Assembly: GCA_032768795.1 (NCBI GenBank)
Contig: CP136490.1
Span: 2,108,001 to 2,172,000 of the forward strand
Direction of reading: 5' to 3'
From: Tremella fuciformis
Lineage: Eukaryota > Basidiomycota > Tremellomycetes > Tremellales > Tremellaceae
DNA: 64,000 nt
Position numbers and translations under genes: made by a program. Below are positions 2,339 through 62,333 of the stretch, one piece after another (within the stretch, counting starts at the first letter, position 1; every line of letters begins with the position of its first letter). The notes under the pieces were generated by a model. It saw nothing but the letters and a program-made list of their open reading frames with translations, searched no databases and was not told the origin of the DNA.

Positions 2339-2473
2339 GACGGAGGACCACTTCGAGGCTGGCGGTGCGTAGGCAAGGTCGACGAGTTTGTTGACGCGTT
2401 CTATCTACCGCGACTTGTCGAACGAGACGTTACCACGACGGAATCTTAGCTCTGAGGCAATGGGATTCCGGTC

Positions 2474-2555
2474 ACCTGTTGCCCGCTCAGCACTTGCTAT
2501 GAGTGATGCATTCGGACTTACCTGTTGCCCGCTCAGCACTTGCTATGAGTGATGA
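2474..2555. repeat. Two copies of a 34-bp direct repeat next to the copia gag
   Basis: A 34-bp sequence beginning CCTGTTGCCCGCTCAGCACT occurs twice, starting near 2475 and near 2521, about 46 bp apart. The second copy is followed by GGGCAACA, the inverse of the TGTTGCCC near its start. The copies lie between gag and the presumed LTR body, which suggests duplicated LTR ends or an LTR-internal tandem repeat. Confidence 0.7.
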
Positions 2556-2637
2556 GGAGGGCAACAGGCGGCGGCATTCTACAAGGTCGTCGAGGGTGTC
2601 GGCGTTATAAGCGGAGTTATCGTTGGTGGCAGCTTCT

Positions 2638-2712
2638 CTGCCTCGTCGAGGGTGAACCTCGTCGAGGCACAACCTCGTCGAGGATCGAGTAGCCTCGACG
2701 AGGTTACTCGAA
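2638..2712. repeat. Cluster of CTCGTCGAG / CTCGACGAG palindromic motifs
   Basis: Four copies of the self-complementary core CCTCGTCGAGG or CCTCGACGAGG lie within about 70 bp. The same core recurs inside the copia coding region (near 724-755, 1397 and 1702-1735). The density suggests LTR regulatory sequence, but that role is inferred. Confidence 0.6.
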
Positions 2713-3234
2713 GATGAGTCAAGCTCATGTGAGCGTACCACCTATTTCCGTCGTTGCTCGGTCTTGGTGCTGCTTTGGTGTCATTCGTGACACTCTGCTC
2801 CTCTCCCTCGTTGTGCGTTTGGGCGTAAGGAATGCATCTCGGGCCTGCCGGGAGGGCAGGGAAAAACTACCTGTTACTACGTGTGTCTACCAAGCTGTCG
2901 CACCAGGGGATCCCCCGCGTGCCAAGGGGTGGGGCGCACCCACCCAACAGCTGACCCGATCCAGGGTTCCCGGAGTCTCTGCCGTCGAGCGCAAGGCGTG
3001 GGCGGGTGGGCGATCGACGGACGGCAACGAGGACGAGGCGGCGGTGCTTGTGGGCAAGATGGTGACGGTTGAGAGGGACTCAAACGATCGCTCGGAGCCC
3101 TCAAGTCCCTTGCTGCATCACGTGACCATCCAACCTCTGAGTCCAATTTCTGCTATAAACTCGCGAGGGTTTCGCAAATCAAGTGAGCCAGTGACAGGGA
3201 GGGATCGGCTGCGTGAAGTCTTTCTCCAGTTCTA
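2713..3234. other. Non-coding stretch between copia flank and orphan gene
   Basis: About 520 bp holding short overlapping frames on both strands but no motif, convincing start or splice pattern. It could include the outer part of the copia LTR. Nothing else is recognisable. Confidence 0.4.
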
Positions 3235-3758
3235 CTAGGTCAAGCGGGACAGTGTGTCTAGAATGATCATTTGGTGTCGCGACACAAAATCCCTTACGAG
3301 GTGTCTGATCCCCAATGGGAGACGGACCATGTCAGAGACGGATTCTTGTTGGGTATTGGTATACTTCACCAGCCAAGGCTTCCACATTTTTCTCTCGACC
3401 AGGAGACTATCAGCTCCAGTGTACTCGAAGGATCTAAACGGACGCCCCAAGTACCCAGGTATATTGGGGTCGAGGTCATACTGTAGGTTTATCCAATCTT
3501 CATGTCGCTGTCTTCGTCATACCATGTCTTGGTGAGGCGGTTCCAGCACGTCTCTTCAGGGACGTACGGGCTGGGGTGGACTAGTTCTCCTTCGAAACGA
3601 CGAGTGATTGTAATTCGACGCCGCACCCCGTCCAAGGCATCTGCCTCGAGTGATAACATGTGTTCTGCCGTTTTGTTCGGCTGAAGGCTCGACTCCGCAC
3701 CTTCCGTGTCTCCGCGTGGCTCTTCCGCAACCCCATATAATATCGCAATGTCATTCAT
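3235..3758 (-). CDS. Orphan small protein, member 1 of the tandem family (two exons)
   Basis: The ATG is at 3758. The first frame stops soon after residue 85, but a GTACGT donor at 3567 and an AAG acceptor at 3512 join exons 3568-3758 and 3235-3511 in phase, giving 155 residues. The intron is inferred; a frameshift is the alternative. The C-terminal half carries the family signature: an aromatic-DLD segment (YDLDPN), then WLVKYTN and LPLGIRHLVRDFVSR. These align with the tails of the proteins at 5628, 7475 and 8607. There is no signal peptide or membrane segment, and the function is unknown. It is transcribed in the same direction as the other members. Confidence 0.55.
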
Positions 3759-4320
3759 CGTGGCTTGAGGGCCAAGGCAGGCTATAACGGACGTTCACAG
3801 ACCCAGAGTCGGCTCGGGACAGCGGCAATCGCTCTTCCGTTCCTTTTACTCATCGAAGAGAGACGCAAGGGTCTTGGCATTGATCTCGTATGTTGGCATA
3901 GTGGTGTGTGTGGCACGCTTCGAGGGAAGATGCTTGGGACGCGGAAGGATGGTGCGGATTTCTATACTGGATGTTCTGAGCAAGTTCACCATACATTCAA
4001 AACGAGTGTCAAAAGGACTAAGCGATTATTGGCGAGATTGAGCATGTCAGTATCTATAATTGACCAGTCTCGGTGACCTACCTAGCGTTGTACAGTTCTC
4101 ATTGACCTGTCACCGTTGGTACTCGACTTTCGAAGTCTCTCAAGTTGTAGATTCTCGCGATGCCATGTATAAGGCATCGGAACCCTCCCCCCTTTAGGAC
4201 GGCAAAAGTCGACCATGGCTGGCGCGAGAAATATGAGCATACAGCATGGAGGATGGCCTCCGTGGGGGGCTATAGAATGCACACTCGTACAAAGGTAAAG
4301 CTTCCCTCGACCATCTAGTG
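3759..4320. other. Intergenic spacer in orphan array
   Basis: About 560 bp between array genes. Short frames on both strands lack motifs or a plausible ATG context. No RNA gene or repeat was seen. Confidence 0.4.
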
Positions 4321-5040
4321 TCAATGATCGTTTGGGCGGGAGACATCAGAAGTAGCTTGAGCGGATCCTTCGGTATCTTGGGAGTTTGCTACAGGTAACA
4401 ATAATCTGAAGTCTACTCTTTTCAGAATGTTGTCTGGATCCTTGATATCCTTTAGGAGGAGTGAACAACTCGGAAAGCCGTAGCTGCACTGATAGGTCCC
4501 GTCCTGGGTCTGTCCAAGGCAGAACATCTCTTGCTTTGCCCCGGTCATGGAAAAGCTCTTGAGCGATCCATCCTGATTGTGCTCCCGGGACCCCTCAAAC
4601 AGCTTGCGACCATGGGAGAACGCATGGCAGGATATACTGTGCCACAATATCCCCTCTTTGGTCACTGTTCCCGTAAACCGGTCATTGGCCTCAAATTCAG
4701 GTGGACCATCTTCCGCAGCTTGAGATGTAAAGCGAGCCCAGAATCCGACTTCTTTCCCGAGATCGTCTGGGTGAGACGGACCGTTATCCGCTTTAATGTC
4801 GCAACTTGGGTTTTGCTGGCACGCCTCCCATGTGCTCTTGTACATTTGTTCAATGTCCTCGATATGGCAACCTTTTGTACCAAAACTTATGGACATGGCC
4901 TCGCTGAATGCAAGTGAGGGGAAACACGCCTCACACCCATTACCAGGAGAGTCATAGTCCTCGGCAATGGCCTTCAGCCAGCGGAGATACTCCTCACCCT
5001 CATCGAGGATCGCGGTTGCCTTTGGGTGGTCCACAGTCAT
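4321..5040 (-). CDS. Orphan 239-residue protein in the small-protein array
   Basis: A single open frame starts at the ATG at 5040, chosen because a TATAAAAGG box lies 35-43 bp upstream (the longer reading extends through that box). The protein is Cys-containing and acidic, with a GNGCEACF motif near residue 34 and CHIEDIEQMYKSTWEACQQ near residue 55. The C-terminal part (DGTYQCSYGFPSC followed by LLKDIKD) only loosely resembles the YTD-x-G...LP-x-x-I motif of neighbouring genes, so membership of the same family is uncertain. No signal peptide, transmembrane helix or known domain was recognised. It is co-oriented with the other array genes. Confidence 0.65.
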   Translation of the reverse strand: MTVDHPKATAILDEGEEYLRWLKAIAEDYDSPGNGCEACFPSLAFSEAMSISFGTKGCHIEDIEQMYKSTWEACQQNPSCDIKADNGPSHPDDLGKEVGFWARFTSQAAEDGPPEFEANDRFTGTVTKEGILWHSISCHAFSHGRKLFEGSREHNQDGSLKSFSMTGAKQEMFCLGQTQDGTYQCSYGFPSCSLLLKDIKDPDNILKRVDFRLLLPVANSQDTEGSAQATSDVSRPNDH

Positions 5041-5074
5041 GAGGGTGGTAGAGCAGGAAAGATACGATGTGCGG

Positions 5075-5083
5075 CCTTTTATA
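5075..5083 (-). promoter_or_regulatory. TATA box of the gene starting at 5040
   Basis: TATAAAAGG on the minus strand lies 35-43 bp before the ATG. The short distance implies a very short 5' leader. Confidence 0.65.
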
Positions 5084-5627
5084 CTGTGTGGCGACTGGTC
5101 CGAGTTTTCACATGAGGTTCTAAGGAGATGCAAATCATCAAAAGACGGTGAACAGCAACGAATAGCAATTGGTCTTCGTCATCAGCGTGTGACACGAATG
5201 AGAGATCGTCAATGGGCCAATTTGCACTACTGTACGCGCGCGCAGATCGAGTGATCAAACCAGTCTTCTCTGCCATTTTAGAGCGCTCAATCTCAAATTC
5301 AAGTTTGAGAACTTTTTGAAGACGTGGGATACAGACCTAGGCGGTCTTCCGGCGAGGGATAGTCTTCTTTGGGGAGCAGCTGAAATGCGTCTTTCGGCTC
5401 ATGACAAAGAATGAAAGCTCAACGATGGAGTACTCGGCACAGGAATTGTCAATCCATTGGTGACGTTGTTCACCTTGATCAGCAAGCTTTGGTCTTCTAT
5501 CCCTCCTATGCGAGACGCAACCCTCTCCGTAATGGCAAATGAGAAATAAAATGAGTCATCAAATGCTAACTACATGATAGTGCTGGATCAAGTTTGGACT
5601 GGAGAACAGGTGGCTTAGCCGCAGGAT
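5084..5627. other. Intergenic spacer in orphan array
   Basis: About 540 bp with no supported gene. It is less GC-rich than its surroundings. No RNA or repeat was recognised. Confidence 0.4.
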
Positions 5628-6083
5628 CTACCTCCCACCGACTGTGGACGACAGGGAGTTCTGCCGCTGTATGAACTTCTCCACATCGCCTCGAATCTCA
5701 CTCGGGAACTTGGATACCTCCTTAACCTGCCTACCATGGGCATCAGTGAAAAGGGTGATCCATCCGAGGATACTTCCGTCCGCCGCGCGACCCTTGATAG
5801 TGAGTACGAGGTTCTCTTGATCGACGCCACACGCGCTGAACGACATGAAGCGGTCTCCGTCAAACCTGCAGTGTGTGGTGGCAACGGGTTCTTTACCCGT
5901 TGGATCATACTCCTTGTTGTTATCCTTGGCCCACTTGGCGAGACTGCTGTCATCGAGGTCAAAGAGGGCCCTCAAGGCGCTCTGAATCTCCTTGCTCACA
6001 GCAGTTTGATCGTTCATGATCGTAGTATCGTCAGGCTTGACGAAAGTGGTATTGGTCCCTTCAGTACCGGCTTTGGTGCTCAT
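5628..6083 (-). CDS. Orphan small protein, member 2 of the tandem family
   Basis: The ATG at 6083 begins MSTKAGTEG; the longer frame upstream lacks an ATG. The protein has 151 residues and no intron. After a variable acidic N-terminus with a helical stretch (SALRALFDLDDSSLAKWAKD), the second half carries the family signature: FDGDRFMSF, then WITLFTDAHGR, then FPSEIRGDVEKFIQR. No signal peptide or transmembrane segment is visible, so a soluble intracellular protein is likely. Function is unknown. A TATATTAA-like element lies about 60-70 bp upstream on the same strand. Confidence 0.75.
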   Translation of the reverse strand: MSTKAGTEGTNTTFVKPDDTTIMNDQTAVSKEIQSALRALFDLDDSSLAKWAKDNNKEYDPTGKEPVATTHCRFDGDRFMSFSACGVDQENLVLTIKGRAADGSILGWITLFTDAHGRQVKEVSKFPSEIRGDVEKFIQRQNSLSSTVGGR

Positions 6084-7474
6084 GTCTGCCTGGATAAGTT
6101 GTGGTGCTGGAGGTGGGGGCAATCGTATGCCGAAGGGGTCATGTTAATATAAGACAGGCTCTTCCATTGTTCCGACGTTCACCTCCAAATAAAGCCAAAT
6201 GCGCGCTGTAATATTGCCCGTCCAAGCCAAACACACGCCCGCGCCATTGGTGATCCCTATTGGCAATGGGCGCAGTCGACGGTCTATGGAATTGTCCACG
6301 ACCGTTTCATACAGGACCCCGGGATTGTGACACGGCCGGTCACGGGATGCAAATGGCTGTCTTCGCCTTTGGTCATTCCCGTTGGCCATTCGCGTTGGGA
6401 AGTGGGCGTCCGCGCAATGTCACAGAAGACCACTATTCCAGATCAGGCGACGCTTTCGTCTGAGAGCAGTTCTGGCCATGAGGTGGGCCTCGTGCCAAGG
6501 ACAGCGAGCAAGATGAGACGAAGCAGAGCACCACTTGAGACTCATCCGCTCTCTTCGACTAGGTCTTGCTCAGTGCGACGGCTCGAACAAGACCCCGTTC
6601 GCAAAGCCGTGCAAACTTGGGGTCCGTGCGTCGCATCCAAGAAGCATTACTCTCAGAGCTTGTGCGAGCGTGAACGTCTGGACGTGAATTGTGAGACCAC
6701 TCTCCTGAGCTCGTACGTGATCACGTCTACTCAAGTATACGCCGACTCCATTTGTACACGGTGATTATTTGCTCTGTGCGGAGGAGACCTTCGGGAGGGC
6801 AGCAAGTCATACACGAGAGATCATTCGGACAACCACTGCCGTTGTTTCTGCGCTTTGTTCAGGAGGATTCGAGGCCAGTTTTGCGCACCGGACTCTGGAT
6901 GAGGTCCGACGACCAAAGGTCAAATCTTACCATTCCGTCAGATATATACTCCTCATGTTCCTAGCGGGACGCAGCAACGGGGTGCTCGCAATGACTCCAC
7001 TTAGGGCAAGCTGCGGCATAAGTCATACGACCATCAGATCCGTCTATCTGCGCTTCTTTTGGCTATCACAACGACGACTTGTTGGACCTAAGCCTCCCTT
7101 AACAGATTTTGCAGGTGAGACCTCTGATTCTGTCCTCTGCTTCCGACCGGCCAGTCGTTGAGAGCGGAGGCGGCTCACTCGTGCTGCAGGATTCTGGTCT
7201 CCACAAGACTAAGATGAGTGGCTTTGGAACGGGTCCGGTATCGGATCGCAGGGGGATCGTTGAGATACTTTGTGTGTCCCTCAACCTCTCAGCGGCGAAG
7301 GATCGTTTCGACCTCACTCGAGCGGGCTTCAGAGTGACAAAACTAGATCCGTCCACCACAGCACGTCAAAACGGACACAGGGAGATGTATACATGGTGCT
7401 GGGAAGTAACAGAGGACGGATTGACCGTGTGGCTGATGAAGGAGGAGGAAAGTCCGCCGTAGGAGGTGGAGAGT
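6084..7474. other. 1.4 kb gap in the orphan array, no confident gene
   Basis: Several medium frames occur here. The best is on the plus strand, ATG at 7214 to a stop at 7462 (82 residues ending in an acidic tail after YTWCWEV), but it has no family signature, neighbouring exon or motif. The gap may hold a decayed member or a promoter region. Confidence 0.35.
6145..6156 (-). promoter_or_regulatory. TATA-like element of the gene starting at 6083
   Basis: CTTATATTAA on the minus strand is about 60-70 bp upstream of the ATG, a position like those in front of the genes at 8134 and 9822. Confidence 0.4.
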
Positions 7475-8134
7475 TCACCTGTCATCTCCCCCAAACCCTT
7501 GCGTCTTATTCTCCCTGTCTATAAAGGTCTGTATCGTTTGCCGGATGACCTTCGGAAACTGTTCAAGGTCATTGATCTGACGACCTTTGCAGTTCGTGTA
7601 CACTGTCGTCCACATGGAGCTGGCATATGGGACTGCAATCCCAAGGCTCTCGTAGGTGGGCGTTGTGACTGAGAAAAATCTGAAATGCCCTTCGCCGTCA
7701 AGATCGTATGAGATAGTCACTTGTCGCTGTGCCTCGTGGCTATAATGAATCTCCTCTACTTGGCCAACGTCTTCGATGGGACTTGATGGCTTGATTCGCC
7801 GATTGGGCCGAAAAATGCGTGACACGGCGGGGCTGTCGGAGAACCCAGACTTGTTTGGCAGGGGAAAGAAGCGGGTGAAAACGCCATTCTGTTCTTTGCG
7901 GTTAATGTCACCTCCAAACCACATCTTCTCTTCCTCCGGTGCTTTGGAGTTCTTCTTCGTACTCTGCAGGAGAGCTTCGAGGTCCAGGGGATTAGTCTGA
8001 CCAAGACAAATCTCAACAGCTTGCTTGACCCATGCGCTTACACCAGTCTCAGCGGCTTTGGCCAAGTGGTTGCCGTCATCGTCCATGTCCGTGGCAAGGG
8101 ACCACAGGGTTGTGGACTCGTTGGATGGGTTCAT
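7475..8134 (-). CDS. Orphan small protein, member 3 of the tandem family
   Basis: Intronless, 219 residues, ATG at 8134. The N-terminal third is acidic and helical (TDMDDDGNHLAKAAETG, then AWVKQAVEICLGQ), followed by a Lys/Glu-rich linker. The C-terminal part carries the family signature in its clearest form: ISYDLDGEGHFRFFSV, then WTTVYTNCKGR, then FPKVIRQTIQTFIDR. It is a paralogue of the proteins at 3235, 5628 and 8607. No signal peptide, transmembrane helix or known domain was seen. A TATATATAAG box sits 60-69 bp upstream. Function is unknown. Confidence 0.8.
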   Translation of the reverse strand: MNPSNESTTLWSLATDMDDDGNHLAKAAETGVSAWVKQAVEICLGQTNPLDLEALLQSTKKNSKAPEEEKMWFGGDINRKEQNGVFTRFFPLPNKSGFSDSPAVSRIFRPNRRIKPSSPIEDVGQVEEIHYSHEAQRQVTISYDLDGEGHFRFFSVTTPTYESLGIAVPYASSMWTTVYTNCKGRQINDLEQFPKVIRQTIQTFIDRENKTQGFGGDDR

Positions 8135-8193
8135 GATCGAGCTCAGTCGTGTGGGGCGCAGTGCGGGCGCAGGGGCCGGCCGGCTTGGCCAAG

Positions 8194-8203
8194 CTTATAT
8201 ATA
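8194..8203 (-). promoter_or_regulatory. TATA box of the gene starting at 8134
   Basis: TATATATAAG on the minus strand, 60-69 bp upstream of the ATG. Confidence 0.65.
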
Positions 8204-8606
8204 CCAGGTTACTCCGTTGTCGCTCGTCTGGCATTGGAGTCTTGCCCAGAACAAACAATAGAACGATGTGAATATACCTGCCCAATTCAAATACCTTTCC
8301 TCGACTTTGTAAACTGTCGATTGGAATATAAGTGCGTATGAAAAGAGCTCCCCAAGCTCGAATGTGACAGATTGGGATTGAGGATGTGAAAAGTGTTCAA
8401 AGCAAATCATGCCACAGGGGGTTTCGCCGACAGCGGGCAGATGAGTCGTGAGCGCTTTCGGAATGATGATTCGCATACTCTATGGGACTTGCAAGCGTAA
8501 GAACGACTACAAAAGTGGCTCCGCTTCTTTCCGAGCTCACACGGTATGTACAGATTGCATGGTCAAAACATGGAATATCAAATGTCTTTGTTCAGAATAC
8601 GAACGC
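8204..8606. other. Intergenic spacer in orphan array
   Basis: About 400 bp with no supported gene, RNA or repeat. Confidence 0.4.
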
Positions 8607-9140
8607 CTACTGAGCTGGCTCATCCGTCGGTGGCCGTGGGCGCCAAGTCGAAGGTTGTGTTGCGGGAGCGTCATCCTGCGTGACGCTCGAAGCTGTTGAG
8701 ATTTTCCGGGTAGAAGACGAGTCTTGCGAGCTGTCCAGAGCTTCGGGCGTGTATATGGACAAGAATGTCACCACGGATCCCTTGATGTCATCTGGGAGGT
8801 TTTGTGTGCCCGAATAACGCCCCGATTGGTCAGTGTACTCTATCTTCCAATGAGATCCTGAGCGTTCGTTCTTCATGATCGAAAGCCTCTCCTTTTCCAT
8901 GCCAATGAAGAGGAAACTCGCGAATTCGCCACTTGCGTAGTCGAGATCGAACTGCGCACGGAAAATTTGCGTCCTACCCATGTCATGCCAAGCCTCCATG
9001 CTAGAAAAAGTGCGTGGCAGCCCTAGGTTCAAGCCGAATTTGTCTGTCAGCCTTCCAAAACTCTGCTCAAACGCGACCTTCTCCTGCCCCGGTTCGCCGG
9101 TTGAGGGGAATGTAAGGTTCACAGTGTGCACCTCCGTCAT
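8607..9140 (-). CDS. Orphan small protein, member 4 of the tandem family
   Basis: Intronless, 177 residues, ATG at 9140. The middle part carries the family signature: FRAQFDLDYASGEFASF, then WKIEYTDQSGR, then LPDDIKGSVVTFLS. Unlike its relatives it has an extra Ser/Thr/Pro-rich tail of about 45 residues after the signature. No signal peptide or transmembrane segment is present. There is no obvious TATA box in the 127 bp separating it from the next array gene. Function is unknown. Confidence 0.75.
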   Translation of the reverse strand: MTEVHTVNLTFPSTGEPGQEKVAFEQSFGRLTDKFGLNLGLPRTFSSMEAWHDMGRTQIFRAQFDLDYASGEFASFLFIGMEKERLSIMKNERSGSHWKIEYTDQSGRYSGTQNLPDDIKGSVVTFLSIYTPEALDSSQDSSSTRKISTASSVTQDDAPATQPSTWRPRPPTDEPAQ

Positions 9141-9267
9141 GACAGACGCCTACGGAGGAGCGCTCCGGGGTCGGAGTCTCTCTTCCAGGCAGGCCATGTC
9201 CTAGATGCCCTCGATTTGGGTGCCACATTGCCACATTCATAATGTTGCTGACGGACAATTTCGGGGA

Positions 9268-9822
9268 TTACAGGATTACAGGGCAACAACTGGGGTCTAT
9301 CGCCTGGCACAACTCCAGTATCTCAGACGGGATCATGGTGTGCTTGACCCCATTTGTACCAGTGTATGACACCGAGATGTTGGGCTCGCCTTGACCCGTC
9401 CCATATTCTACGTAAAATTTCTCCCATTCTCTTATAAAAGAAAAAGACCAAGACCGCGTGGCGTTCGCCTCGCGCTCTGTGTACTCCCATGAATCTGCAC
9501 TTGGATCGTAGGTACCGTAGAACTTCCGGATGCACCTGAAGCCTGCAGTTGGCATTTCGCACTTCGAAACTACGGCACAGTGCGGGCTGGGGAAGGCATC
9601 GTCTTTGTACTCGGCAATTCGGTAAAGGTCCTTCGGGGTGTTTTCTGTGTCCTTTGCTCTTTCTTCGTTAACGATTGTGTCGTATGTATTTTCCTCGCCC
9701 AACTGGCGAATAAAGTTCTGGATTACTTCGCTGCATCCTTTAGAGACAGTTGGCGTCACTGCCGACGTGCCCAGGGTGGGGTCGCCGCCCAGTGCAGTGT
9801 CATGGGCTGATTCAGAGCTCAT
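9268..9822 (-). CDS. Orphan small protein, member 5 (most diverged) of the family
   Basis: Intronless, 184 residues, ATG at 9822. It has a disordered N-terminus, then VSKGCSEVIQNFIRQLGEE, then FYGTYDPSADSWEYTER, then a weaker form of the family tail (ISVSYTGTNGV, IPSEILELCQAIDPS). It aligns with the other members in order and spacing, but the identity is low. It is Cys-containing with no signal peptide or membrane segment. A TTTATAAG box lies 74-81 bp upstream. Function is unknown. Confidence 0.7.
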   Translation of the reverse strand: MSSESAHDTALGGDPTLGTSAVTPTVSKGCSEVIQNFIRQLGEENTYDTIVNEERAKDTENTPKDLYRIAEYKDDAFPSPHCAVVSKCEMPTAGFRCIRKFYGTYDPSADSWEYTEREANATRSWSFSFIREWEKFYVEYGTGQGEPNISVSYTGTNGVKHTMIPSEILELCQAIDPSCCPVIL

Positions 9823-9895
9823 GGTTGGATAGTTATGGGTATGCTCGATGTAGAGTTAAGAGGGGGTGGCGGGGGAGTGTCGCATGCGGTTGGAG

Positions 9896-9903
9896 CTTAT
9901 AAA
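9896..9903 (-). promoter_or_regulatory. TATA box of the gene starting at 9822
   Basis: TTTATAAG on the minus strand, about 74-81 bp upstream of the ATG. Confidence 0.6.
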
Positions 9904-53109: not shown

Positions 53110-54774
53110 TTACATGCGTATGACTGTAGCTGGAGCACGAGACGGACCCCCTTGACCAGCCCCAACAGCGTTGGAAGCCTTAGCTCGCTTCTTTGCCGCC
53201 CTTTCTTCGTCCATCTTCGCCACTCTCTCATAAACCTCGGTCGTGGTGAGGGTGAAGGTTCCCAATGTAGAAACGCTCACGATCTTGCGCTTGGCCTTGG
53301 GTCGGTCCAAGGCAGCGTGCAGCTCGGTATTCTCTCGCTCTGCAAGGGTGTAGCGGGCGTGCGCAACCTCGGATGTCTCGACAAGCTTGTCGAAGTGATT
53401 TTTGACCGGTGTTGATAGATCCGAGCCATAAAGGCTCATAAAAGCTCGGTTCTCGCTTGAAAGTGAGCCCAATGGCTGGCTAAGCAGCAGATGAGACGGA
53501 CGAGGTGCTCTTTGAGGTGTGCAGACGTCCTGCAAGAGCTTCTGAGGGTTGAACGGCTCAAGACCAGTATTTCGCCACCCAGACTTGATGTTCCGCTCGG
53601 TCAGGGCTTCTTGACGAGCCTCGGCGAGCAGTCCGGCCCAGACACTCTTCGATATTGTCGGGGAGTGCCAGCGCGAGTAGCGAGCGATCGCAGAGGCCAT
53701 GGCGGCTTTCAGAGGCTTGAATACTCCAACATCCAGAGGCTGCGAGATGTTTGAGGTGTGCGAAGGTAAGATCATGAGGTCGATGTCGTTGGCAAGACAG
53801 ATCCCGATAAACGTGGCTCGCACATGGCTGCCATGACCGTCGACGATGAGCAGTCGACGCTGATTGGGTGTGTCGATTGCTGCATTCGGAAGGAAGATCA
53901 AGTCGAGCCATTTGAGGGCTGTCGCATCATTTGTCCAGCCTGACTCGCTTGCAGACCAAGCCCAAGCGCTGATATCGACCCTTGGGTTCTCTGGCATCCA
54001 CCCCGAGCTCACGCCTGCCTTGCCCTTGAAGATGACAAGTGGCGGTAAGGCCTTGCCTGCGGCCGAGACGCATTCGATGGTGGTTACCCACTCTCTCGAG
54101 CCCTGCTCCTTCTGCCAGGCCTTGTTGCCGGTCTTGGGCAATAACGAGACGGTATCGGCCTTGTCCATGACCGCAAGGACCTGTCGAGAGGCCGTGAGAC
54201 CAAGCCCGTAGCCAGTTTCGTCCATGTTGTAGATATTTTGCGGTTCGTAGTTGTTCAACTCTCGCAGCTCGCGGACCTCATTGAACCAGGCTGTCATGTT
54301 CTCCACATTGGCCCCATTGAAGCGGGCAGCATCGATCCTTCGCGTGGTGGTCGTGCGGACCTCTGGGTGTCGAGATTTGAAGCGTTGGATCCAGTTGATG
54401 CCAAGGGGCTCGATAGAATCCGGTCGGCAAGTCGGGTCAAGGAGCAGCCTGGTCTGTCGGAGCTGACTGGCAATGGTTTTGGCCTCTTTTGGTGTGATAG
54501 GATGGCCCAAATTGGTCATACGTCGCATGTGATCGACCAGGGCTGTCTCCTCACGCGGTGTGAGGGCTTGAAGGGGCTCTGCAGCGGTGTTGTGGTCGGA
54601 AACGCCAGCCGAGACGCGTTTGGATAGGGTCTGGTGGTTGATGCCAAATTCTGCAGCAATGACGCGCATTGAGGGAGGATTGTCGGGCTCTGCAAGTAGC
54701 CTAGACCAGTAAGCATCGACTGCAGCCTGGATGGTAGCTTTGGAAGCCCGCATGCTTGAGATAGAGCGATCCAT
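53110..54774 (-). CDS. pogo/Fot1-type transposase
   Basis: Intronless, 554 residues, ATG at 54774. The N-terminal HTH_psq-type domain (ATIQAAVDAYWSRLL, INHQTLSKRVSAG) is followed by a CENP-B-type HTH (EETALVDHMRRMTNLGHP, WIQRFKSRHPEVR). The DDE_1 catalytic core has its three acids in NIYNMDETGYGLG, LLIVDGHGSHVRA and SQPLDVGVFKPLK, giving a DDD triad as in pogo/Fot1 elements. The C-terminus is basic, possibly a nuclear localisation region. The ORF has no stop or frameshift and full family length, so the enzyme may be functional. It is the only gene of the element. Confidence 0.95.
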   Translation of the reverse strand: MDRSISSMRASKATIQAAVDAYWSRLLAEPDNPPSMRVIAAEFGINHQTLSKRVSAGVSDHNTAAEPLQALTPREETALVDHMRRMTNLGHPITPKEAKTIASQLRQTRLLLDPTCRPDSIEPLGINWIQRFKSRHPEVRTTTTRRIDAARFNGANVENMTAWFNEVRELRELNNYEPQNIYNMDETGYGLGLTASRQVLAVMDKADTVSLLPKTGNKAWQKEQGSREWVTTIECVSAAGKALPPLVIFKGKAGVSSGWMPENPRVDISAWAWSASESGWTNDATALKWLDLIFLPNAAIDTPNQRRLLIVDGHGSHVRATFIGICLANDIDLMILPSHTSNISQPLDVGVFKPLKAAMASAIARYSRWHSPTISKSVWAGLLAEARQEALTERNIKSGWRNTGLEPFNPQKLLQDVCTPQRAPRPSHLLLSQPLGSLSSENRAFMSLYGSDLSTPVKNHFDKLVETSEVAHARYTLAERENTELHAALDRPKAKRKIVSVSTLGTFTLTTTEVYERVAKMDEERAAKKRAKASNAVGAGQGGPSRAPATVIRM

Positions 54775-54967
54775 AGAAAGAGTAATGTCAACAACGCGTC
54801 ATGTCAGAGATGAACTAGGTAGATCGTGCAGGAAAGTGCGCGATAGGGCGTAGCTCGTTATTTCAATTCTTTTTTAGCTCTGAATTTCTAATCAGGTATT
54901 CAAGTTATTGGTTCTCAGGCAATTTGGAAAACCTAATGCAATTCCTTGTTCTTTGGTTCCGTTAGAC

Positions 54968-61703: not shown

Positions 61704-62333
61704 ATGTCCCGCATACTCAACAGCCCGCGGCCCAACGCACTGCTCAATGCAGTAGCCGGCCCATCGCGCCTGTCACACTCTTCCCGGCCAACCCACCTTG
61801 TCCGAGTCGCCGCCGCGCGCAACTACGCCGCTCCGCCCGGGTCCAACCCCCACCTCGCCCCTACAGACAGCAAGACCGACATCCTGCGCACCCTGCTCTA
61901 CCCGCCCGAGTCCATCGCCCCCACGTCCTCATCGCCCGTTGGTGCGCACCACCCACAACACGCCGCGCGGGTGAAGCACATCATACAGGACCCCGAAGTG
62001 CACGAGACGATCGAGCGGGCGTACCAGCTGTACCGCCGCGAACAGCGTACGGCCCAGCAGGCGAGCCTGGAGGTCAAGTACGCGGCGATGGTCGAGGCGT
62101 GCGACGAGCTGGATCGAATGACGCAGAGTGGGGAGTTGGCGAGGGGGGTATATGATCGGGCGATGGCGCGGACGGCGGGGCCGGTGGAGAAGGTCGAGGG
62201 GAAGAAGAATAGCCCGGAGAGCAGGTTCAGCGAGGCGAGACTGGAGGGCTTGTTCCCGAGGGAGATGTGGGTGCCGACCGAGACGAGGGGCAAAGGGTGG
62301 AATTATGACTGGAAGCGGCCGGGCTCTGCGTAG
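61704..62333 (+). CDS. MRPL28: Mitochondrial large-subunit ribosomal protein mL40
   Basis: Intronless, 209 residues, ATG at 61704. The N-terminus (MSRILNSPRPNALLNAVAG, then RVAAARNYA) is a basic import presequence. The body is helical: VKHIIQDPEVHETIERAYQL, then YRREQRTAQQASLEVKYAAM, then CDELDRMTQSGELARGVYDR, ending in FPREMWVPTETRGKGWNYDW. This order and the final aromatic segment match fungal MRPL28 (mL40). The gene is divergent from the MAPEG gene, 252 bp apart. Confidence 0.8.
   Translation: MSRILNSPRPNALLNAVAGPSRLSHSSRPTHLVRVAAARNYAAPPGSNPHLAPTDSKTDILRTLLYPPESIAPTSSSPVGAHHPQHAARVKHIIQDPEVHETIERAYQLYRREQRTAQQASLEVKYAAMVEACDELDRMTQSGELARGVYDRAMARTAGPVEKVEGKKNSPESRFSEARLEGLFPREMWVPTETRGKGWNYDWKRPGSA

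What the first reader, a model, noticed from the sequence alone, without database searches (positions are those of the whole stretch)
3235..9822. Tandem array of at least five diverged orphan paralogues sharing an unnamed C-terminal motif
The proteins at 3235, 5628, 7475, 8607 and 9268, all on the minus strand and 150-220 residues long, share a motif order seen directly: an aromatic-DLD/DGD segment, then W-x2-V/E-Y/F-T-N/D-x3-G-R (WTTVYTNCKGR; WITLFTDAHGR; WKIEYTDQSGR; WLVKYTN), then F/L-P-x2-I-R/K-x2-V/I-x2-F-I/L-x-R (FPKVIRQTIQTFIDR; FPSEIRGDVEKFIQR; LPLGIRHLVRDFVSR; LPDDIKGSVVTFLS). N-termini are unrelated. No known family was recognised. A locally amplified, fast-diverging family beside a retrotransposon suggests conflict, recognition or environment-response genes.
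Basis: partly seen in the sequence, partly recalled or inferred. Interest (0 to 1): 0.82.

Follow-up and report, generated by a model that had tools for sequence, protein, structure and literature searches.

The report
Diverged orphan gene array in fungus
A fungal chromosome carries a row of at least eleven fast-diverging, same-strand gene copies that share one protein domain with no relative found in the databases searched; such rows of orphan gene copies are known in other fungi, but the function of this one is unknown.

Summary
A profile of the shared C-terminal domain recovers each of 10 core members when held out (E 1.9e-7 to 7.4e-26 among 1385 ORFs) and finds an 11th unseeded (E 1.4e-17). 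All 11 lie on one strand in C1 2080.8-2117.1 kb of a 28.1 Mb tremellomycete-like genome; eight genome searches gave no credible match elsewhere. Two copies are frame-broken. The domain is predicted as seven antiparallel strands plus a helix, without a clear known relative. No homologue appeared in a word-based search of 5.8 billion proteins; a control gene found 42. The Copia element inside the array has identical LTRs (318/318), but the closest pairs have dS 0.72-1.50, so it did not build the array. Six of 12 promoters tested carry TATA-like boxes; some share a rare two-part element. Best reading: a lineage-restricted, inducible family of soluble intracellular binding proteins under birth-and-death evolution. 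This is a known kind of array with an unnamed domain.

The parts
3238..3794 (-). m08: frame-broken copy; C-terminal domain part 3238-3516, N-terminal part 3492-3794 in another frame
   Evidence: C-terminal part found by held-out profile at E 6.9e-10; the other frame 3492-3794 scores E 0.0029 with the core profile. A further N-terminal match to m03 (window 3504-3848, 25% identity, E 9.7e-4) holds 1 TGA and 1 TAA.
   Evidence: Core profile E 0.032, best-scoring ORF after the members; semi-global score z 3.5, 1 of 150 shuffles and 0 of 220 decoys as high; finds only itself by single-sequence genome search.
5628..6083 (-). m10: member, 151 aa from ATG at 6083
   Evidence: Held-out profile E 1.1e-11; genome search matches m11 (1.7e-4) and m03 (0.0019).
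7475..8134 (-). m11: member, 219 aa; N-terminal helices, then strand-rich domain and C-terminal helix in the model
   Evidence: Held-out profile E 9.4e-17; model mean pLDDT 73, block means 81-94 for residues 121-210.
8607..9140 (-). m12: member, 177 aa, starts almost directly with the domain
   Evidence: Held-out profile E 9.5e-12; genome matches to m02 (E 2.5e-4) and m03 (7.8e-4).
9268..9822 (-). m13: ORF of 184 aa in the array; membership not supported by sequence, but same strand, and its promoter has a TATA-like box and the two promoter words
   Evidence: Core profile E 8.1, z 0.0, no other genome match; promoter features.
8385..8408 (-). Two-part promoter element GATTTGC-N10-TTTCACA upstream of m11
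   Evidence: Exactly 2 matches of GATTTGCN{5,15}TTTCACA in 28.1 Mb, the other upstream of m03 at C1:2097406-2097427; reversed-pattern control 0. The pattern was chosen after seeing these promoters.
8198..8203 (-). TATA-like box of m11 (69 bases upstream of the ATG)
5078..5083 (-). TATA-like box of m09 (43 bases upstream of the ATG)
9896..9902 (-). TTATAAG, TATA-like box of m13 (80 bases upstream of the ATG)
2436..2753 (.). One LTR (318 bp) of the Copia-type element that sits inside the array; the other LTR is at C1:2105709-2106026, left of the window
   Evidence: 100% identity over 318 bp. 'Copia-type' is read by eye from the ORFs.

Best explanation
A head-to-tail array of paralogues restricted, as far as could be searched, to one fungal lineage. 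At least 11 copies on one strand in 36 kb, in two sub-clusters, descend from one gene by tandem duplication; for the three adjacent close pairs promoter and ORF were duplicated together. The intact copies are small, acidic, soluble-looking proteins without a signal-like N-terminus. Most have a variable N-terminal segment, helical where modelled, and all share a C-terminal domain of seven antiparallel strands closed by a helix (predicted). The conserved positions look structural (F, W, Y, G-turn, P) and suggest a binding scaffold, not an enzyme (inferred). TATA-type promoters, some with a shared two-part element, suggest inducible, jointly regulated expression (inferred). The set turns over by birth and death: two copies are frame-broken and the rest diverge fast under weak purifying selection. 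Most likely function: inducible intracellular binding or adaptor proteins of an environmental or stress response, with specificity spread across copies (inferred). The array identity is about 95% likely; the functional part about 35-40%.
For: Held-out profile test, 10 of 10 core members, plus an 11th unseeded. Own-genome searches with eight ORFs of the array (m01, m03, m05, m09, m10, m11, m12, m13): every match below E 0.01 lies in C1 2080.8-2117.8 kb; the two off-array weak hits (C2, C4) fail the profile. Three of the four closest pairs are neighbours (m01/m02, m03/m04, m05/m06), and upstream DNA of those pairs is also similar, e.g. 78% over 77 bp for m05/m06. dN/dS 0.63, 0.52, 0.46, 0.40, with all four bootstrap intervals below 1. 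Model with seven strands then a helix; the other model ends in the same order, with one more strand before it. pI 4.6-6.1 and no N-terminal hydrophobic stretch for the 11 ORFs with their own start. TATA-like boxes at -110..-30 in 6 of 12 promoters against a shuffle mean of 0.15 and 0 of 14 hand-picked neighbouring starts, some approximate. Both promoter words within 40 bp in 4 of 12; none of 1000 shuffle sets reached 4.
Confidence: 0.45

Rival explanations
1. Conflict or self/non-self recognition genes: intracellular proteins that recognise a rival's or parasite's molecule and diversify in an arms race.
For: Local amplification, strong divergence, broken copies, elevated dN/dS (0.40-0.63), N-termini unrelated between subfamilies.
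Against: Neither the N-terminal part nor the domain has dN/dS above 1 in the pairs split that way (N-part v domain: 0.84 v 0.55, 0.54 v 0.51, 0.56 v 0.38); single sites were not tested. The N-part is somewhat higher in each, which leans mildly towards this reading. No known defence domain: PADLOC gave two weak one-member matches, to CARF/HEPN models, E 0.0036 and 0.0059. No population data.
Confidence: 0.2
2. Mostly decaying orphan duplicates with little function: an old tandem family under relaxed selection, kept by chance.
For: Two of 11 supported copies are frame-broken; dN/dS is high (that housekeeping genes are usually far lower is recalled, not measured here); GC is lower than in the flank (0.525 v 0.595).
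Against: Nine of 11 supported copies keep an intact frame although the closest pairs have dS 0.72-1.50; the bootstrap intervals of dN/dS exclude 1; upstream DNA and TATA-like boxes are kept.
Confidence: 0.25
3. Secreted effector cluster, as known from plant-associated basidiomycetes (recalled).
For: Clustered, small, orphan, fast-evolving, cysteine present in most copies.
Against: None of the 11 proteins with their own start has a hydrophobic N-terminal stretch: highest 12-residue mean hydropathy within the first 36 residues is 0.63. No conserved cysteine column. No dedicated signal-peptide predictor was available.
Confidence: 0.05
4. Retrotransposon-driven family: copies made or spread by the neighbouring Copia-type element.
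For: The element lies inside the array, and the intact copies appear as single ORFs.
Against: LTRs identical over 318 bp, against dS of 0.72 or more for the closest pairs. Copies are confined to one locus, and the adjacent close pairs share upstream DNA, which retrocopies would not.
Confidence: 0.03

Closest known systems
Tandem paralogous orphan genes of Neurospora crassa (Kasuga et al. 2009, PMC2684829; part of the abstract and passages seen; author name recalled)
   Same: Lineage-specific, mostly head-to-tail, tandem, strongly diverged paralogues (mean identity of tandem pairs 36.1% there; 31-47% for the four closest pairs here); a figure legend there marks clusters of five or more paralogues.
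   Different: That set is enriched near chromosome ends; this array lies about 2.1 Mb into an 8.65 Mb contig. Here a shared domain, a fold model and promoter features are described. Different phylum.
TATA-containing duplicated new genes in yeast (PMC3553024; passages seen)
   Same: Duplicated new genes there are often TATA-containing (71.4% against 23.3% genome-wide), which that paper links to stress-responsive regulation; 6 of 12 promoters here.
   Different: Different organism and a different TATA definition; no expression data here.
OspA central single-layer beta-sheet (PDB 6kk9 and others)
   Different: 10% identity; the best OspA row in Foldseek has E 0.088; bacterial surface lipoprotein (recalled). 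In that row the C-terminal helix is outside the aligned range (model residues 1-106). Likeness of shape only.
Basidiomycete secreted-effector clusters (recalled, no call)
   Same: Clustered, small, fast-evolving orphan genes.
   Different: No signal-like N-terminus here.

Membership tests
Tandem array of lineage-specific orphan paralogues (as in PMC2684829) | Paralogues detectable by sequence | tested here: met
   10 of 10 core members recovered when held out, 1 further unseeded.
Tandem array of lineage-specific orphan paralogues (as in PMC2684829) | Head-to-tail, adjacent | tested here: met
   All 11 on the minus strand within 36 kb; closest pairs m01/m02, m03/m04, m05/m06 adjacent. About 14 kb with other genes (WD40 and LUC7 recognised) separates m01/m02 from the rest.
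Tandem array of lineage-specific orphan paralogues (as in PMC2684829) | No homologues outside the lineage | tested here: inconclusive
   No hit up to E 10 for a profile (1165 candidates) and for one member (155 candidates) in 5.8 billion proteins; the control gene found 42 relatives, several from Tremellomycetes. The search needs shared 5-residue words, so remote relatives could be missed. The array's own proteins were not listed either, so this species is not well covered. No annotated sister genome could be read.
Tandem array of lineage-specific orphan paralogues (as in PMC2684829) | Located near a telomere (enriched there, not required) | tested here: not met
   C1:2.08-2.12 Mb of 8.65 Mb.
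Secreted effector | N-terminal signal peptide | tested here: not met
   Hydropathy only, 11 proteins with their own start: highest 12-residue mean 0.63; no dedicated predictor run.
Any Pfam / NCBIfam / PADLOC family | Match by several members with a convincing E-value | tested here: not met
   Best E-values 0.0036 (Pfam DUF5069), 0.054 (NCBIfam), 0.0036 (PADLOC); each listed family was matched by 1 of 12 proteins. m02 was not among the 12.
Named structural fold (OspA-like sheet, CapZ, START-like, LolA, MORN) | Significant structural match over the whole domain | tested here: inconclusive
Retrocopies made by the Copia-type element | Copies no older than, and dispersed with, the element | tested here: not met
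   LTRs 318/318 identical; closest pairs dS 0.72-1.50; one locus only in eight searches.

The most novel reading that the evidence does not exclude
A previously undescribed beta7-alpha domain family, invented in one fungal lineage and used as a co-regulated set of intracellular recognition proteins. Unrelated helical heads are joined to a common sheet domain, and some copies are driven by a private promoter element (GATTTGC-N5..15-TTTCACA) that occurs twice in the genome, both times in this array.
Probability: 0.15. Interest if true: 0.6.

Novelty: new member of a known kind. Interest (0 to 1): 0.36.

Why it matters
Many orphan genes stand alone and cannot be compared with anything. An array of 11 relatives in one genome supplies enough sequence to model a shared domain (mean pLDDT 85.5 from 11 rows), to estimate divergence of duplicates and to look for common promoter elements. 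It makes testable whether such clusters are regulated functional units or debris. If the family is functional it would be a lineage's own protein domain with its own regulation.

Tried and rejected
Retrotransposon as the driver: rejected on LTR identity against duplicate age. Membership of 9268: not supported, although its promoter has both words and a TATA-like box. Shared N-terminal helix motif (a W-Y/F-N segment seen by eye in several copies): tested by held-out N-terminal profiles and not supported (E 2.8 or worse for 8 of 8; m08, m10 and m12 not tested). Off-array hits on C4 and C2 (E 0.2 and 0.06): profile E 13 and 38, rejected. An ORF at L008:4217-4600, top decoy, lies upstream of m06 and shows no motif by eye. 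Fold identification by Foldseek on two models (PDB for both, viral library for one) and by VIA: no clear relative; CapZ, START-like, LolA, MORN and teneurin rows were seen at weak scores. Intron explanation for m08: considered by eye only; both parts line up with neighbours without a missing piece, so a frame break is more likely, but a sequencing error cannot be excluded. Literature: searched for tandem orphan arrays in basidiomycetes, Tremellomycetes or Tremellales and for birth-and-death arrays in fungi (3 of 3, 0, 8 of 8 and 10 of 33 papers listed); no listed title or abstract start concerns this family. One search gave PMC2684829; one search gave PMC3553024.

Rows dropped or mislabelled: m12's upstream region was left out of the promoter tests (it is m13 coding sequence), so n is 12 of 13; the start of m02 is uncertain, and m10 was taken from its ATG at 6083. 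In some searches the best non-member row, 3492-3794, is the other frame of m08. In one search the rows printed for m01 and m03 were the wrong ORFs (ambiguous label); one search gives the right ones. In one search the rows of m02 were left out of the decoy list. One search scored 220 randomly drawn decoys out of 435 ORFs of 100-400 aa (members removed before drawing). The output was cut, so some ORFs left of the window were not seen there; the later profile run used the full list.
Full report
WHAT THE WINDOW IS. The window is C1:2108001-2172000 of a 28.14 Mb assembly in 11 contigs. A gene in the window (61704-62330) has 42 relatives at E 0.001 or below in the protein database, named as a mitochondrial ribosomal protein where named. 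The best is an unnamed protein at 83%; the nearest with an organism name are from Tremella mesenterica (56%) and Saitozyma podzolica (56%), followed by other Tremellomycetes. The source is therefore a tremellomycete-like basidiomycete; the species was not identified.

THE OBSERVATION. The quoted motifs are present. A domain profile built from ten core members was tested by leaving each out in turn and searching 1385 stop-to-stop ORFs of the window and five 10-kb pieces left of it. All ten were recovered, E 7.4e-26 (m03) to 1.9e-7 (m01); unrelated ORFs scored E 0.47 or worse in the full-length run and 0.96 or worse in the domain run. Where a close partner stayed in the profile (m03/m04, m05/m06, m07/m11) the test is easy; m01, m08, m10 and m12 had none and still gave 1.9e-7, 6.9e-10, 1.1e-11 and 9.5e-12. 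The full profile also found an unseeded relative, L006:4222-4575 (m02, E 1.4e-17), and the second frame of m08 (E 0.0029). Window 4324-5178 (m09) reached E 0.032, the next best; in a semi-global test it beat 149 of 150 of its own shuffles and all 220 sampled decoy ORFs. Window 9271-9855 (m13) reached E 8.1 and z 0.0, so its membership is not supported by sequence.

EXTENT. Left of the window lie m01 (C1:2080854-2081540), m02 (about 2082222-2082835, frame-broken), m03 (2096563-2097435), m04 (2098019-2098861), m05 (2100004-2100699), m06 (2101404-2102093) and m07 (2102989-2103696) (coordinates of intact copies are stop-to-stop). In the window are m08 (frame-broken), m09 (probable), m10, m11 and m12, with m13 unsupported. 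All 11 supported copies are on the minus strand. Whole-genome searches with eight of the ORFs (m01, m03, m05, m09, m10, m11, m12, m13) gave matches below E 0.01 only in C1 2080.8-2117.8 kb. Two of them, m09 and m13, found only themselves, and m05 found m06 strongly but m04 only at E 0.45, so links between subfamilies rest on the profile. The two weak outside hits (C4 E 0.198, C2 E 0.0635) have profile E 13 and 38. About 14 kb with other genes, among them WD40 and LUC7 proteins, separates m01/m02 from m03-m12: a cluster of two sub-arrays, not one unbroken row.

BROKEN COPIES. m08 is split between two frames, and its far N-terminal match to m03 contains one TGA and one TAA. m02 is split between frames as well. 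Both were only described.

EVOLUTION. The closest pairs are neighbours in three of four cases. NG86 estimates (dN, dS, ratio, bootstrap 95%): m03/m04 0.45, 0.72, 0.63 (0.45-0.89); m05/m06 0.52, 1.00, 0.52 (0.33-0.79); m07/m11 0.68, 1.50, 0.46 (0.26-0.66); m01/m02 fragment 0.41, 1.02, 0.40 (0.21-0.69). All are below 1 and high; no conserved gene was measured beside them as a yardstick. Upstream DNA of the three adjacent pairs is also alike, so promoter and ORF were duplicated together there. N-terminal parts of different subfamilies show no detectable relation. The Copia-type element between m07 and m08 has LTRs identical over 318 bp, C1:2105709-2106026 and 2110436-2110753, so it is a recent guest.

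PROMOTERS. TATA-like boxes stand at -110..-30 in m01, m05, m07, m09, m11 and m13: 6 of 12, shuffle mean 0.15, 0 of 14 neighbouring starts picked by hand, some approximate. The 7-mers ATTTGCA and TGTGAAA each occur in 7 of the 12 (11 of 300 shuffle sets reach 7 for some 7-mer). Both words within 40 bp: 4 of 12 (m03, m09, m11, m13), 0 of 1000 shuffle sets reach 4, 0 of 115 pieces of the rest of the window. GATTTGC-N5..15-TTTCACA occurs exactly twice in the genome, upstream of m03 and m11, which are about 18% identical. A looser form, ATTTGC-N4..30-TTTCAC, occurs 51 times, against 32 for the reversed control, 2 of them in the array. The words were picked from the same data and, without m09 and m13, only tie with three others, so this is suggestive. 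With strand and position it is the only line that ties m13 to the array.

INTERPRETATION. Shown: tandem paralogy, confinement within the limits of the searches, dN/dS below 1, frame breaks in two copies, a recent Copia-type insertion. Predicted: fold, solubility. Inferred: inducible expression and a binding role. TATA-containing genes are linked to stress-responsive regulation, and duplicated new genes to TATA boxes, in yeast (PMC3553024, passages seen). Tandem, head-to-tail, strongly diverged orphan paralogues are described in Neurospora crassa (PMC2684829, part of the abstract and passages seen). The finding is a new member of that kind, with an unnamed domain.

Noticed in passing
L010:2852-3394 and 3619-4026 (+), C1:2060.9-2062.0 kb: A pair of related orphan ORFs on the plus strand (E 7.8e-5 and 1.3e-4 between them); a genome search with part of the first finds only itself at E 1 or below. 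ORFs at L010:276-1070 and 1276-2259 look similar by eye but gave no match at E 1 or below.
   Followed up: partly
C1:2105709-2110753 (right LTR at window 2436-2753): Copia-type element with 318/318 identical LTRs inserted in the array, so recently inserted. Other copies were not sought.
   Followed up: partly
window 53110-54798 (-): Long ORF that looks like a DDE-type transposase (by eye, no search run).
   Followed up: no
L008:2004-2699 (m05): The ORF ends in C-I-V-I, a CaaX-like end that could be prenylated (motif recalled); not seen at the ends of the other copies.
   Followed up: no
L008:6479-7105 (-), C1:2104479-2105105: Glutamate-rich repetitive ORF (ELGEGLAELEEVNEELGEG...) next to the Copia-type element.
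   Followed up: no
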